Assembly (NCBI GenBank): GCA_031273145.1
Contig: JAISSL010000272.1
Location: 1-13,461, forward strand
From: Zoogloeaceae bacterium
GTDB taxonomy: Bacteria > Pseudomonadota > Gammaproteobacteria > Burkholderiales > Rhodocyclaceae
Direction of reading: 5' to 3'
Length of the DNA: 13,461 nt
Under the pieces are notes generated by a model. That model saw only the letters and a program-made list of their open reading frames with translations, searched no databases and was not told where the DNA came from. Below, in pieces: positions 1,311-13,461 of the stretch (within the stretch, counting starts at the first letter, position 1; each line of letters starts with the position of its first letter). Both the position numbers and the translations under genes were made by a program.

Positions 1311-1441
1311 CCACTCCGTCATTCCCGCGTAGGCGGGAATCCAGGGTTTTTATGCCGGCGTGGCGTAGGGGCATATTATTTCCTTCATGTGAAAACCCTT
1401 GTTCCTACTGGATTCCCGCCTACGCGGGAATGACGGAGTGG
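1311..1441. repeat. 131-bp MITE-like element with perfect 34-bp terminal inverted repeats
   Basis: Positions 1311-1344 and 1408-1441 are exact reverse complements (34 of 34). Each arm contains its own palindrome, ATTCCCGC-GTAG-GCGGGAAT, which fits the ATTCCCN8GGGAAT pattern known from the neisserial dRS3 family and from similar intergenic repeats in other betaproteobacteria. The inner flanks also pair partly (gggttttt near 1345 with gaaaaccc near 1391). The 63 bp between the arms codes for nothing recognisable. It lies in the 328-nt gap between the barrel gene and glnE, ending 54 bp upstream of the glnE start. A non-autonomous mobile repeat or paired REP is the likely nature; no flanking target duplication was established. 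Confidence 0.8.
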
Positions 1442-1585: not shown

Positions 1586-2493
1586 TCAGAATGAAACGCC
1601 GATTTTGAGGCCGAATTCCTTGGTGTTGTTTTTGGGTTCATAAAGGGGTGTGCGAACCCAAATCTCCGTAGTACCAACCGTACAACAATAAAGATCACCT
1701 TCTTGGGAATCCGATTCTGCGATGTTCCAGTATCGGTAAAAAGGTTCGACAAAAGCTTTCACTTTCCCGAAATCCTTTTCCCCTTTTACGGAGAATCTTA
1801 GCCCGTATCCGCTCGTTTGCCGAAATTTCAACTTCTGATCCCTGCCGTATCGGTCATAGAGGTGCGTTGTATTTTCGCCACTCAGCAAAAAATCAACTTC
1901 AGTGTTGAAAGCAACACCCCAGCCGTGTGGCATAGACAATTTCCAGTCCGCGCCTACCGGCATGTAATAGTAGACCTGTTCGCGTTCATAATCGCCAGGC
2001 ATGGAGTCTTTTTCATCCACATGGTAGCGATAACCGAAGCCTATGTACGGAGCGGTCGAAAATTTCTGGGTCAATCTGGCTTCAACGCCAAGCGCGAGAA
2101 CAAAATCATTGTAGCGAAAGGTATCGCCTTTATACTTGAGTTTCTCCCCGCTTACTATGTAGCTGCCTTCATACGTGAGGTCTTCGCTTGCGCTGGACAT
2201 ATAATGGTATCGTGCGCGAAGCTGACCCGACAAACTTTCGTTAAAACGGCCATCAAGCAGGTATTGAACTGAAAGTCCAGACATTGACCCATAGACTTTC
2301 ATGTGACCCGGTTCCTCGTATTCATAGTCGGAAAATTCCAACGCGGCGTCGAAATTGTGCGTGACTCTTTTGGCTGCCGAACCTTTGCTCTGCGCGAATG
2401 CGGGCGCGCAAAAAACGAAAAGAAGCGCCACAACCAGCAGCAGTTTGCTGAGATTGGCTGAGATTGGCTGAGATTGGCTGAGATGGATTTCAT
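1586..2493 (-). CDS. Putative phase-variable outer-membrane beta-barrel protein, out of frame at its 5' end in this sequence
   Basis: Third cassette, in transcription order, of three paralogues. The barrel frame is open from above 2493 down to the stop at 1586. It encodes a mature protein with alternating aromatic/polar strands (APYIGFGYRY, PVGADWKLS, FVEPFYRYWNI) and ends FGLKIGVSF, with the terminal Phe expected of Bam-inserted outer-membrane proteins. The ATG at 2491-2493 is preceded by a GGGAG ribosome-binding site and begins MKSIS, as in the siblings. However, 62 nt, including a 10-bp tandem repeat, separate it from the first in-frame GTG (2431), so the ATG frame runs instead to a 64-residue dead end (stop at 2299). 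The GTG has no ribosome-binding site and would keep only half of the signal peptide (MALLFVFCAPAFAQ). With two repeat units fewer or one more, ATG and barrel join and give a full signal peptide with an AFA cleavage site. The exact barrel family was not recognised. A sequencing or assembly error in the repeat is the main alternative. Confidence 0.75.
2447..2484 (-). repeat. 10-bp tandem repeat (3.8 copies) inside the signal-peptide coding region
   Basis: Plus strand: GCTGAGATTG three times in perfect register (2447-2476), then GCTGAGAT (2477-2484). The coding-strand unit is TCAGCCAATC. Because 10 is not a multiple of 3, each gain or loss shifts the reading frame, so one copy number in three is productive. 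The two paralogues have no such repeat at the matching place. Confidence 0.95.
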
Positions 2494-2577
2494 TTTGATC
2501 TCCCTGGTGGAAAAGGTCTCGCTCTTGTCTTGGCCCTGCATGGCGGCGGGCAAGCCCGAGAAATTCAGAATGGGTAT

Positions 2578-2606
2578 ATGTTAGAATGGAAAAAATTGAT
2601 TGTCAA
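2578..2606 (-). promoter_or_regulatory. Near-consensus sigma70 promoter of the phase-variable barrel gene
   Basis: On the minus strand: -35 TTGACA (2606-2601), 17-bp AT-rich spacer, -10 TAACAT (2583-2578). Transcription would start near 2571, leaving an untranslated leader of about 78 nt before the ATG at 2493. The -35 is perfect and the spacing optimal. Confidence 0.8.
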
Positions 2607-2683: not shown

Positions 2684-3652
2684 TCAGAAGGTGACGCCGA
2701 TCCTCAGGCCGAATTCCTCCGTCCTGTTTTTGGGGAACTGAAACTCATAATCAATGGGCTGATTAGTCCGTCGATCATAAAAGTAATCGCGCTCGGTACG
2801 CGATTTCTCGATGCTCCAGTAGCGGTAAAAAGGCTCGGCAAAAATTCGCATGGCTCCGAAATCCCTCTCGACCTTCAGGGCGAATTTCAGGCCATAGCCG
2901 CCATCCTGCTTGACGTACACGTATTCGTCCTTGTCGCGCATGTAGTACTCGTCGTCATCAAAACGAATCTGATTTTCGCCGCTCATCAGGAGATCAAGCT
3001 CGGTGTTGAGAGAGAGTTTCCAGGCGCGCGCCGGAAAAAGTTTCCAGTCCGCGCCCAGCATCAGATACGAGGCGCTATACGTGCGTTCACTTTCCATGAC
3101 GTGACTGGTCATCACGTTCCTTTCCATGTAATCGTCATCGGTAAAGGAACGAAAACCGTACCCCAGATAGGGCGCGAGCGAAAAATTTTCAGAAAGCCCG
3201 GCTTCAGTGCCAATCGCAAAGGCAAAATCAAAAACCCGCTGGGTAACGTCACCGCTCTGCTTGTAGCCGACAGAATCCTCATAATCGAGACTGCCACCAT
3301 ACATATAACTGAGTCGCGTGCGAACCTGAACCGGCATGGATTCCCTGACCCGGAAAATATCGCCCTGGTATTGCATGGAAAATCCCACCATTGTCCCATC
3401 AACTTTCATCTCCCTCGGTTCCTTGAATTCATAGCTGGAGACTTCGGGAGCGATGCTGAACAGGTGCTTTTTGCGGGACGGTTGTTTTTGCATGAACGGG
3501 CGCTTTTTTTCTGTTTTTTGCGCAGGTTCTGTTGCTTGCACAGAATCTGTTTCTTGCACAGATTCCGTTTCCTGTTCTTGTGCAAATGAGGACGTGCAAA
3601 AAACAAAGAACAGACCTATCGCCAGGAACAGTCTGCTGATATGCGTTTTCAT
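2684..3652 (-). CDS. Putative outer-membrane beta-barrel protein, paralogue 2
   Basis: Predicted exported protein of 322 residues, probably inserted in the outer membrane; function unknown. The start at 3652 was chosen because AAGGAG (3659-3664) lies 6 nt upstream and MKTHISR matches paralogue 3; the upstream extension is leader sequence. The signal peptide has its hydrophobic core at about 8-21 and ends SFA before Gln. Residues about 25-60 form a hydrophilic Glu/Gln/Lys linker built from 6-residue repeats (TESVQE, TDSVQA, TEPAQK), absent from the siblings. The barrel follows: YEFKEPREMKVDGTMVGFS, APYLGYGFRSF, LMLGADWKLF, FAEPFYRYWSI, ending FGLRIGVTF with the terminal Phe. It has its own promoter and terminator-like hairpin. 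Membrane location is inferred from signal peptide, strand pattern and C-terminus. Confidence 0.85.
   Translation of the reverse strand: MKTHISRLFLAIGLFFVFCTSSFAQEQETESVQETDSVQATEPAQKTEKKRPFMQKQPSRKKHLFSIAPEVSSYEFKEPREMKVDGTMVGFSMQYQGDIFRVRESMPVQVRTRLSYMYGGSLDYEDSVGYKQSGDVTQRVFDFAFAIGTEAGLSENFSLAPYLGYGFRSFTDDDYMERNVMTSHVMESERTYSASYLMLGADWKLFPARAWKLSLNTELDLLMSGENQIRFDDDEYYMRDKDEYVYVKQDGGYGLKFALKVERDFGAMRIFAEPFYRYWSIEKSRTERDYFYDRRTNQPIDYEFQFPKNRTEEFGLRIGVTF
3528..3581 (-). repeat. Three imperfect 18-bp repeats coding the linker of paralogue 2
   Basis: Units 3528-3545 and 3546-3563 differ at only two positions; 3564-3581 is more diverged. Being a multiple of 3, copy changes would alter linker length but not the frame, unlike the 10-bp repeat in the neighbouring gene. 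Confidence 0.75.
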
Positions 3653-3833: not shown

Positions 3834-4706
3834 TCAGAACGCAATGCCAAGTTTCATCCCGACTTCCTGCGTTTCGTTTTTGGGGAAGTACACCGGGTGT
3901 ACTTCCCAATTAGAATCCTCCACGAACTTGGCTTTTGATCTTGGGATGTTCTGATAGCGGTAAAAAGGCTCGGCGAAGACGCTGATTCTCCCGAAATCCA
4001 TTTCAACCTTTGCGGAGAGCCTTATGCCATATCCATCTTCGTGCCTGAAGGTGCTGGCCTTGTCTTCAATATCACCCCACGCGTCTTCGTCATACTCGCG
4101 GTAACGACTCACTCTGGTTCCGCAGTTTGACACATAATCGAGTTCGGTGTTGAAAACAAGTCTCAAGTTGCGACTCGGAGCCAATTTCCAGTCAGCGCCC
4201 AGCGGCCAGTACAGACACTCCTGCTTGCGCTCGGGGTTGTGATAACTGAGATCCCAGGTTTTATCCAGAAACCGGCGATAACCTATCCCAATGTAGGGTG
4301 CGACAGAAGAATTTCCGCCTAAACGAGCCTCCCCGCCAACCGCCAAAGCCCAGTCATAAAACCGATGCTCTTCTCCGCTGCGCTTTTCGGGAGGGTGGTA
4401 GCCATCTCTGTCGCGGTAACCGTCAATGTTGGATTCGAGATTGTTACTCGTCATATAAATGACGCGCGCGCGAAGCGATGAGCGGGCAGCCAGATATTGC
4501 AGGGAAAAACCCGCCATCGTGCCATCAGTTTTCGCGCCCGGTTCCGTGTATTCATAGCTGGAAACTTCCGCCGCGATGGAAAAAGGGTGCACGACCATTA
4601 CCTTTTTCTCGGCCTTTCTTTCGTCGGAATCCTGTGCCGATGCGGCTACGCAAAAGGCAAGGCCAAGCCCCGCCGCCAACAACCGTCTGCTGATATGAGT
4701 TTTCAT
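3834..4706 (-). CDS. Putative outer-membrane beta-barrel protein, paralogue 3
   Basis: Predicted exported beta-barrel protein of 290 residues; function unknown. The start at 4706 (MKTHISRRLLAAG) has AAGGAG 6 nt upstream, and the leader and first codons are nearly identical to those of paralogue 2. The signal peptide ends ASA before Gln. Conserved blocks shared by all three paralogues are a SYEYTEPG opening strand, APYIGIGYRRF, PLGADWKLAP, FNTELDYV, FAEPFYRYQNI and a final VGMKLGIAF ending in Phe. It carries cysteines around the middle (ERKQECLYW, SNCGT) that paralogue 2 lacks, and it lacks the Glu/Gln linker of paralogue 2. First of the three in transcription order. The AT-rich region around 4797 probably holds its promoter. 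Confidence 0.85.
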   Translation of the reverse strand: MKTHISRRLLAAGLGLAFCVAASAQDSDERKAEKKVMVVHPFSIAAEVSSYEYTEPGAKTDGTMAGFSLQYLAARSSLRARVIYMTSNNLESNIDGYRDRDGYHPPEKRSGEEHRFYDWALAVGGEARLGGNSSVAPYIGIGYRRFLDKTWDLSYHNPERKQECLYWPLGADWKLAPSRNLRLVFNTELDYVSNCGTRVSRYREYDEDAWGDIEDKASTFRHEDGYGIRLSAKVEMDFGRISVFAEPFYRYQNIPRSKAKFVEDSNWEVHPVYFPKNETQEVGMKLGIAF

Positions 4707-7691: not shown

Positions 7692-8825
7692 CTACTGACA
7701 GAGCAGGCTGGGGCCGGTACAGACGTGTGGCGCGGGGCGGGCGTTCGCGGCAGCGCGCGCAGCCCGTTGCTGTTCCTCTGCCTTTTTCGCTGCTGCTCTT
7801 TCCCGCTCGGCGTTAGCCGCCCGTTGTTCCTCCGCCCTTTTCGCCGCCGCTCTTTCCCGCGCTGCGGCTGCGGCTCTTTCCCGCGCGGCTGCGGCTTTTG
7901 CCTTTTCCCGTTCTGCGGCAAGAGCCTTTTCCCGCTCTTCGGCAGCAAGGGCTTCCTGTTCTGCCTCCGCAGATAATGCTTCTTCCGCAGAAGGTTCAGC
8001 TTCCGCAGGCGCTTCCCCTTCTTCTCCCGGCGCTTCTTCTGGCGACGCGCCTTCTTCATCAAGCGGCTCGGTTGCCTCCTCTGGCGCATCCGTCGTCAGG
8101 ACGGGAGGAGTTTCCGGCGCGGCTTCTTCCGGTTTTTCTCCAGAGAAGACGGAAAACCAGATTGCCACCGCCAGTAGCGCCAGCGCCATGACAACGATGC
8201 CCATTATCAACGGAAGGCGGGAAGCAGGCGTCGGAGTCGGCGTTACGGTCTCTAAAGCGTCCTCCTGCATGGCAGGTTCGGAAGTATCACTCTGCGGTAT
8301 GGCTTGCGAAACCTTGTCCTGCGCGACCGTTTCCGAAATGCTTTCCTGCGGCGCAACTTTCACAGTGCCGTACTGCATGGCGGGTTGGGAAGTGGCGCTC
8401 TGCGGTATGGCTTGCGAAACCTCGCCCTGCGCGACCGTTCCCGAAATGCTTTCCTGCGGCGCAACTTTCACAGCGTCGTACTGCATGGCGGGTTGGGAAG
8501 TGGCACCTTGCGGTACAGTTTCCAAAACGCTGTTCTGCGGAACGGTTGCCGAAACGTCGTTTTGCGGCGCGGCGACTATGGCGGGTTCCGGGTACGCGAT
8601 GATTTCCGCCACGGGCACGGTTGCCGCCGCTACCGCCGTTTCTGGTACGGGAGCTGCGGCTGCCGTTGCCGTTACCGCCAGCCCCGCGCCGCAATGCCTG
8701 CAAAACCGAGCGGACAGGGGATTGGGAGACTGGCAGGCAGGGCAGGGGCGCATAAGCGCTTGTCCGCAATTCCGGCAGAAGCGGGTTGGGCTGGATTGTG
8801 GCGCGTTGCAATGCGGACAATTCAT
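7692..8825 (-). CDS. Double zinc-ribbon, single-pass membrane protein with TolA-like helical C-terminus
   Basis: Not assigned to a named family. Of 377 residues, 1-50 hold two treble-clef zinc ribbons (Cys3/6/17/20 and Cys28/31/42/45). Residues 51-200 are a Pro/Ala/Gln-rich linker with a near-identical 36-residue repeat (108-143, 144-179, start of a third). Residues 204-227 are one hydrophobic helix. Residues 230-290 are Glu/Pro/Ala-rich, and about 285-362 form an Ala/Glu/Arg/Lys helix resembling the long TolA arm. The tail (HVCTGPSLLCQ) has two more cysteines. A cytoplasmic zinc-ribbon end and a periplasmic helix is the simplest topology, by inference. GAGG upstream supports the ATG at 8825. 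It starts 10 nt after the preceding gene, also a zinc-ribbon membrane protein, so the two are almost certainly one operon and may act together. The charged-helix part may simply be low-complexity sequence. Confidence 0.85.
   Translation of the reverse strand: MNCPHCNAPQSSPTRFCRNCGQALMRPCPACQSPNPLSARFCRHCGAGLAVTATAAAAPVPETAVAAATVPVAEIIAYPEPAIVAAPQNDVSATVPQNSVLETVPQGATSQPAMQYDAVKVAPQESISGTVAQGEVSQAIPQSATSQPAMQYGTVKVAPQESISETVAQDKVSQAIPQSDTSEPAMQEDALETVTPTPTPASRLPLIMGIVVMALALLAVAIWFSVFSGEKPEEAAPETPPVLTTDAPEEATEPLDEEGASPEEAPGEEGEAPAEAEPSAEEALSAEAEQEALAAEEREKALAAEREKAKAAAARERAAAAARERAAAKRAEEQRAANAERERAAAKKAEEQQRAARAAANARPAPHVCTGPSLLCQ
8290..8505 (-). repeat. Two near-identical 108-bp tandem repeats inside the zinc-ribbon gene
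   Basis: Copies 8290-8397 and 8398-8505 are in exact 108-bp register and differ at only a handful of positions; partial copies flank both ends (about 8254-8289, and degenerate sequence after 8505). They code the 36-residue linker repeat and keep the frame. Such high identity points to recent duplication or ongoing copy-number change. Confidence 0.9.
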
Positions 8826-12612: not shown

Positions 12613-13461
12613 TCAGAATATGTCTCCCTGCTTCCCGGTTTTTTCTTCCACACTGGCCTTTTTGAAGGTGGTAGCGCCGTAGGAAAGGTCAAGGTATTCC
12701 GCCCGTTCGCTACCATTCAACAATCCGGCAATGGTGAGGATTTGCAGTTTGCGAAACGCCTCTCCGTTAGCGGGACTGGTGTAATAACCCGCTTTGACGG
12801 CTTCTGTCGTCATGGCCTTGGTCGGTTGCGCCAACGTGACAAACAGGCCAATTGCCGCCTTTTCCCGCTCAACCACATGAGCCAGTTCGCGGATCATTCT
12901 CACTTCCACGTTTTCGCCCCCCTTCACGGATACCACAATTTTCTTGTGCGTCTTGCTGCCGTCCTGAAAGAAAATCATGCCATCAATGCCGCCATCCGCG
13001 CCTTTTTTCTTGCCCTGATAGGGTTGCGCGTTGACCAACGAGCAAGCCCACCACTGGAACTGATATTTGTCGCGCCTTGCCAAATCCATTGCGCCTTCTA
13101 GGTCCTTGGGCGTACCATGCACCTCAAAGCCGATTTCGGGAAATGCGTCCTTCAAGCGTTTTTCAATCAACGTGATAGCCAGGTGGGTAATGTCAATGCC
13201 AATCCACTGGCGCTTCAGTTTTTGCGCGGCATGAACCGCCGTGCCACAACCGCAGAACGGGTCAAGCACCACCTCTCCTTCTCTGCTGCTGGCGCTGACA
13301 ATGCGTTCCAGCAAGGCAAGCGGCTTTTGCGTCGGGTAGCCAAGGCGCTCTTGCGCCTGGGAATGTATAGGGGCTACATCATCCCAAAGGTCGTCAACGG
13401 TTTCGCCTTCCAGTTCGTCTAAAAAACGCTTCCGCCGAATCCTGTGAGATTTATCGGCGGG
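12613..13461 (-). CDS. Beta-class DNA methyltransferase fused to an Mrr-like nuclease domain (cut by right edge)
   Basis: C-terminal 282 residues of a longer protein; the frame stays open to the window edge. Fragment residues 42-47 are YPTQKP and 66-75 include the SAM-binding motif I, LDPFCGCGTA, as in N6-adenine/N4-cytosine methyltransferases. Motif I lies near the end, so the catalytic DPPY and target-recognition region must be upstream, outside the window (beta-type order). From about residue 135 a second domain follows: GADGGIDG (154-161) and VVSVKGG (176-182), then VEREKAAIGLFVTLAQPTKAM, resembling the Mrr-type PD-(D/E)xK restriction fold. The usual Glu/Gln before the catalytic Lys is Ser (SVK), so cutting activity is uncertain. 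It could be a self-contained restriction-modification protein or a solitary methyltransferase with a vestigial nuclease. It ends 163 bp before alaS, which reads the same way. Confidence 0.88.
   Translation of the reverse strand, partial: PADKSHRIRRKRFLDELEGETVDDLWDDVAPIHSQAQERLGYPTQKPLALLERIVSASSREGEVVLDPFCGCGTAVHAAQKLKRQWIGIDITHLAITLIEKRLKDAFPEIGFEVHGTPKDLEGAMDLARRDKYQFQWWACSLVNAQPYQGKKKGADGGIDGMIFFQDGSKTHKKIVVSVKGGENVEVRMIRELAHVVEREKAAIGLFVTLAQPTKAMTTEAVKAGYYTSPANGEAFRKLQILTIAGLLNGSERAEYLDLSYGATTFKKASVEEKTGKQGDIF

What the first reader, a model, noticed from the sequence alone, without database searches (positions are those of the whole stretch)
2431..2493. Phase-variable outer-membrane protein: 10-bp repeat in the signal peptide, caught in the OFF frame
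Seen: 3.8 copies of GCTGAGATTG lie between a well-placed ATG (2493) and a fully open barrel frame. ATG to the first in-frame codon (GTG 2431) is 62 nt, so the ATG frame is off and ends after 64 codons. Deleting two units or adding one makes the distance 42 or 72 nt and creates a standard signal peptide (with two fewer: MKSISANLSKLLLVVALLF, then VFCAPAFA). Known: heptamer, octamer and other non-triplet repeats in 5' coding regions switch surface proteins of Neisseria and Haemophilus by slipped-strand mispairing. Inferred: this barrel gene switches the same way, with one copy number in three ON. A strong promoter and intact downstream frame argue against simple decay.
Basis: partly seen in the sequence, partly recalled or inferred. 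Interest (0 to 1): 0.85.

Follow-up and report, generated by a model that had tools for sequence, protein, structure and literature searches.

The report
On/off repeat in surface-protein signal peptide
A gene for a bacterial surface barrel carries a stuttered 10-letter repeat in its export signal, and the repeat count in this assembly puts the gene out of frame; because the gene is otherwise intact and other genes of the same genome carry similar repeats at the same spot, it is very probably a genetic on/off switch of a known general type in an uncultured bacterium.

Summary
Confirmed: a perfect 38-bp array of a 10-bp unit (3.8 copies, 2447-2484) lies between a well-placed ATG (2493, minus strand) and an intact outer-membrane barrel frame. 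The ATG frame is OFF and ends after 64 codons. Chance does not explain it (period-10 self-match run of 28 bases; 9-12 in ten simulations).

Best explanation (0.8): translational phase variation by slipped-strand mispairing, working like neisserial opa. New support: (1) the OFF barrel frame keeps 54 of 54 near-invariant family sites; (2) the genome holds five lipoprotein genes with heptamer arrays of 5.9-14.9 copies between ATG and lipobox, one of five in frame; (3) it has 20 poly-C/G tracts of 9 or more, some in surface-glycan genes, and one (11 C) between start codon and signal peptide of a distant barrel paralogue.

Not shown: copy-number change at this locus. No reads and no second genome with this gene were available.

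New member of a known kind; the genome-wide placing of repeats at signal-peptide starts is the more novel part.

The parts
2447..2484 (-). 10-bp tandem array, 3.8 perfect copies, in the signal-peptide n-region
   Evidence: TRF; chance control
2491..2493 (-). ATG start codon
   Evidence: read; aligns with the ATGs of both neighbouring paralogues
2500..2505 (-). Shine-Dalgarno-like AGGGAG, six bases before the ATG
   Evidence: read
2578..2606 (-). sigma-70-like promoter TTGACA-17-TAACAT, 10 of 12
   Evidence: number of sites in the region no higher than in shuffles
2299..2493 (-). ATG frame as assembled (OFF), 64 codons and stop
2408..2443 (-). hydrophobic core of the signal peptide, in the barrel frame
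   Evidence: mean Kyte-Doolittle 3.46 over 12 residues
1586..2491 (-). open barrel frame (301 codons and stop), OpcA-like outer-membrane barrel
2684..3652 (-). in-frame barrel paralogue b2
   Evidence: 45% identity; no array at its 5' end
3834..4706 (-). in-frame barrel paralogue b3
   Evidence: 43% identity; no array at its 5' end

Best explanation
The array is a slipped-strand phase-variation switch of an OpcA-like outer-membrane barrel gene. The unit is 10 bp, so each unit gained or lost moves the barrel frame relative to the ATG; one copy number in three gives an exported barrel, the others a short peptide. The array lies in the polar n-region before the hydrophobic core, so in-frame forms of different length should all be exportable and the mature barrel stays the same. 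SHOWN: the array, the frame relation, the intact and conserved barrel frame, the predicted fold, and the same architecture at five other loci of this genome. INFERRED: that copy number changes in the population, that in-frame forms are exported, and that the benefit is surface diversity (phage or grazer escape is a guess).
For: Perfect non-triplet array between ATG and signal core, beyond chance. OFF frame keeps 37 of 37 invariant and 54 of 54 near-invariant family columns. Five heptamer loci with ATG at the array's edge and a lipobox behind it, copies 5.9, 6.3, 10.3, 10.7 and 14.9, one of five in the ATG frame, three of the OFF ones with downstream frames of 325-347 codons. A metagenomic relative of these lipoproteins, P0049, reads through the same heptamer peptide in frame. 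20 poly-C/G tracts of 9 or more, some in FkbM-methyltransferase and Wzy_C frames. 11 C between start codons and signal peptide of the barrel paralogue on C174. Precedent: opa (PMC3745409, passage).
Against: No copy-number variation was seen, since no reads or second genome with this gene were at hand. 3.8 copies is few. Four barrel homologues in another genus have intact starts and no array, as have b2 and b3. 0 of 19 same-genus genomes hold the barrel or the heptamer. A very recent loss of function would also leave the conserved sites intact.
Confidence: 0.8

Rival explanations
1. Young pseudogene: slippage lengthened the array, put the gene out of frame, and the gene is now lost for good.
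For: The gene is out of frame as assembled; two in-frame paralogues stand beside it and could cover its role.
Against: No decay: 54 of 54 near-invariant sites and a 301-codon open frame. The same kind of start-region array recurs in five other genes of the genome in differing frames.
Confidence: 0.1
2. Assembly error: the true unit number is in frame and the gene is always on.
For: The source is a draft of 294 contigs, 86% complete, and several long poly-C tracts lie at contig ends.
Against: A 38-bp array is shorter than an ordinary short read (general knowledge), and both flanks are unique: the unit pair occurs nowhere else in the genome.
Confidence: 0.06
3. The barrel is made at the present copy number from another start (such as GTG 2431) or by programmed frameshifting.
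For: GTG 2431 is in frame and leaves part of the hydrophobic core; the database protein P0001 begins there.
Against: By eye there is no Shine-Dalgarno-like sequence before GTG 2431, no basic n-region behind it and no clear slippery site; the ATG has a good Shine-Dalgarno and aligns with the paralogues' ATGs.
Confidence: 0.04

Closest known systems
Neisseria opa genes
   Same: Non-triplet repeat in the leader-peptide coding sequence of an outer-membrane barrel; unit number sets the reading frame (PMC3745409, passage).
   Different: CTCTT pentamers there, a decamer here; the best fold match here is OpcA, not Opa.
Neisseria opcA
   Different: opcA switches through poly-C in its promoter (PMC3447861, passages); here the array is in the coding start. 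16-17% identity.
Heptamer lipoprotein genes of the same genome (C19, C32, C41, C201, C224)
   Same: Non-triplet array between ATG and the hydrophobic part of an export signal.
   Different: 7-bp unit, lipobox, unrelated mature protein, more copies.

Membership tests
SSR-driven translational phase-variable gene (contingency locus) | Perfect tandem repeat of a non-triplet unit at the 5' end of the coding sequence | tested here: met
SSR-driven translational phase-variable gene (contingency locus) | Intact downstream frame that another unit number would join to the start codon | tested here: met
   301 open codons, conserved sites kept; frame arithmetic
SSR-driven translational phase-variable gene (contingency locus) | Unit number differs between cells, clones or strains at this locus | not testable with these tools
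   No reads; no second genome with this gene in the searches made
SSR-driven translational phase-variable gene (contingency locus) | Reversible switching of the protein | not testable with these tools
   Needs culture, reporter or proteomics
OpcA family (Pfam PF07239) | Match of the focal protein to the Pfam model | tested here: not met
   No OpcA hit for P0001 at E up to 1, though 8 of 15 family members hit it, best E 2.4e-8
OpcA family (Pfam PF07239) | OpcA fold | tested here: met
OpcA family (Pfam PF07239) | Poly-C tract in the promoter as in neisserial opcA | tested here: not met
   No C/G run of 9 or more in the window among the 20 found in the genome
Opa family | CTCTT pentamers in the leader-peptide sequence | tested here: not met
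   The unit is a decamer; it works like opa but is not filed as an Opa

The most novel reading that the evidence does not exclude
This uncultured lineage uses the start of the export signal as a general switch site. At least three unrelated repeat kinds (a 10-bp array, a dispersed 7-bp array in a lipoprotein family, and a dispersed poly-C start cassette with 15 matches in the genome) have been placed independently between start codon and export signal of surface or exported proteins, giving a large combinatorial set of switches. The poly-C cassette would be a portable element that makes the gene it lands on switchable.
Probability: 0.4. Interest if true: 0.8.

Novelty: new member of a known kind. 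Interest (0 to 1): 0.6.

Why it matters
Repeat-driven phase variation is studied mostly in small-genome pathogens (PMC11475388 says so in its abstract as listed). Here an unnamed draft genome, with no evidence on its host or habitat in hand, carries an apparently rich set: an OpcA-like barrel, lipoproteins and glycan-related enzymes. If unit numbers vary in the metagenomic reads, it becomes possible to ask what selects for surface switching there. It also shows how automatic annotation hides such genes by giving them internal starts (P0001, P0044, P0047).

Tried and rejected
Chance origin rejected. Decay of the barrel frame tested and not supported. The doubled decamer unit elsewhere in the genome: none. 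Barrel homologues in other same-genus genomes: 0 of 19. Empty site: nlpC lies beside aat in 11 of 15 fetched same-genus loci, but neither barrels nor glnE matched in the flanks held, so no empty site could be defined. Viral collection: one distant barrel, L240, not informative.

Internal start as a mark of an OFF gene: I considered it for P0007, P0008, P0011, P0013 and P0036, because the OFF genes P0001, P0044 and P0047 of this genome are listed that way. I dropped it, because P0037, the in-frame neighbour b2, is also listed from an internal start; contig ends could explain others.

P0006, a metagenomic barrel homologue, has an N-terminus that back-translates with perfect period 7 over 8 residues; 1 of 3,000 random 8-residue stretches did so (the pool itself held two heptamer proteins). 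I could not name the genus.

Papers: searches for phase variation with environmental or assembled genomes, and with decanucleotide repeats, gave no direct precedent (0 papers; 1, PMC5231331; 0; none of the 12 listed of 1,043 holds 'slipped-strand mispairing'). Passages of PMC11868660 and PMC5084427 were seen and not used.

Full report
WHAT IS THERE. On the minus strand an ATG at 2493, with AGGGAG six bases upstream, opens a frame that runs into 3.8 perfect copies of a 10-bp unit (2447-2484). The ATG frame ends after 64 codons. Another frame, open for 301 codons from 2491 to a stop at 1586-1588, encodes a signal-peptide core, a likely cleavage site and a barrel; the other two frames hold 11 and 15 stops. 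ATG to GTG 2431 is 62 nt, so the gene is out of frame as assembled. Aligned with its two in-frame neighbours the gene has 29 extra nucleotides exactly at the array, and each neighbour has the core of the repeat once. In ten Markov simulations no period-10 self-match run exceeded 12 bases; here it is 28.

THE GENE IS NOT DECAYING. In a 15-member family alignment the OFF frame keeps all 37 columns that are invariant in the other 14 and all 54 columns invariant in at least 13 of them. The in-frame neighbours b2 and b3 break 7 of 59 and 11 of 61 such columns (the first 100 alignment columns were left out). Codon-position GC is 0.53, 0.39 and 0.52, with the low second position also seen in b2 and b3. 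A very recent knock-out would look the same, so this excludes long decay only.

THE FAMILY ELSEWHERE. The protein search gave 32 matches, the window's own protein included and the best other one 47% identical over its full length. A profile search of 395 genomes of the bacterial family matched 8, of which four (the own genome and three of one other genus) scored over 390 bits; a search of that other genus matched 4 of 21. The four homologues there (L027, L036, L037, L038) have intact starts and no array within 150 bases before to 120 after their start; one has a run of 7 A.

THE GENOME REPEATS THE DESIGN. The window is contig 96 of a 294-contig, 1.98-Mb draft. In 123 contigs (782,866 bases, 13,578 of them masked) I listed perfect arrays: homopolymers from 9, period 2 from 6 copies, period 3 from 5, period 4 from 4, periods 5-20 from 2.8. 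Period 7 or more gave four: this decamer and three heptamers. The others were nine homopolymers, one dinucleotide, one tetramer of 13.5 copies, five pentamers of 2.8 copies and one hexamer of 3.0. A pattern search of the whole genome found five heptamer loci, and none in 19 same-genus genomes. All five have ATG at the array's edge and an export signal with a lipobox-like cysteine straight behind it; copies are 5.9, 6.3, 10.3, 10.7 and 14.9. Only C201 is in the ATG frame. Three OFF loci keep downstream frames of 325, 347 and 334 codons; the fifth, C19, runs off its contig. P0049, a metagenomic relative, has the same repeated peptide in frame before its cysteine.

POLY-C/G TRACTS. The genome has 20 tracts of 9 or more. 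The 19 same-genus genomes have 5-39 (median 20; 2 of 19 below 10); of 40 others of family and order, 27 are below 10 (median 5, recounted; genome sizes and completeness differ, and the tool's reversed-pattern control says nothing for a homopolymer). Tracts lie inside an FkbM-methyltransferase frame (12 G) and a Wzy_C frame (9 G), and 10 C lie at the 5' end of another methyltransferase frame. On C174 a barrel paralogue (36% identity) has 11 C between its in-frame ATGs and its signal peptide. Other tracts are in proline-rich frames or intergenic, so not every tract is a switch. Many belong to one dispersed element with a conserved leader: a DNA search gave 15 matches here and two in each of two same-genus genomes, of 40 genomes searched.

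MECHANISM. Best reading: slipped-strand mispairing changes the unit number, and one number in three joins the ATG to the barrel. The array sits before the hydrophobic core, where length should matter little. opa works so, with CTCTT in the leader (PMC3745409, passage); neisserial opcA also varies, but through promoter poly-C (PMC3447861, passages). What selects for switching is not known; phages or grazers are my guess.

WHAT SPEAKS AGAINST OR IS MISSING. No reads and no second genome with this gene; few units; no arrays in the homologues; promoter-like sites no more frequent than in shuffles. Whether the assembled unit number is the majority state is unknown.

NOVELTY. The kind is known: repeat-driven frame switching of a surface protein. 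The literature searches returned no direct precedent in the titles, abstracts and passages seen; they cover an open-access library only.

Noticed in passing
L170, L171, L172, L173, L174 (G000 contigs C19, C32, C41, C201, C224): Five lipoprotein genes whose ATG stands at the edge of a heptamer array (5.9-14.9 copies); one of five in frame; not found in 19 same-genus genomes.
   Followed up: yes
L009:804-893, L095, L097, L101, L104, L106 and others of G000: Dispersed element with a start codon, a conserved leader of about 36 bases, a poly-C tract and a conserved tail; 15 matches in the genome and two in each of two same-genus genomes of 40 genomes searched. Possibly a portable switch cassette.
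   Followed up: partly
L103:429-1538 (minus): A DUF3617 frame with 26 C between an ATG and its signal peptide, at such an element.
   Followed up: no
L122:8564-8575, L157:5986-5994, L101:1502-1511: Poly-G/C tracts inside an FkbM-methyltransferase and a Wzy_C frame and at the 5' end of another methyltransferase frame.
   Followed up: partly
L210:2172-2225: Tetramer GACT, 13.5 copies, about 160 bases before the open frame of a methyltransferase-like protein on the minus strand; role unclear.
   Followed up: no
P0006: Metagenomic barrel homologue whose signal-peptide residues fit a 7-bp repeat at the same place; DNA not available.
   Followed up: partly
window 3509-3571: 18-bp repeat (3.5 copies, a multiple of 3) just behind the signal peptide of b2, which changes length and not frame.
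   Followed up: no
window 1316-1440: Inverted repeat with ATTCCCGC...GCGGGAAT arms between glnE and the barrel genes, read by eye.
   Followed up: no
window 8265-8515: 108-bp repeat, 2.3 copies, inside the open frame 7692-8825, which looks by eye like a zinc-ribbon membrane protein.
   Followed up: no
window 12613-13461: Frame with N6_N4_Mtase and Mrr_cat/NA-iREase1 matches, a methyltransferase with a restriction-like domain, cut by the contig end.
   Followed up: no
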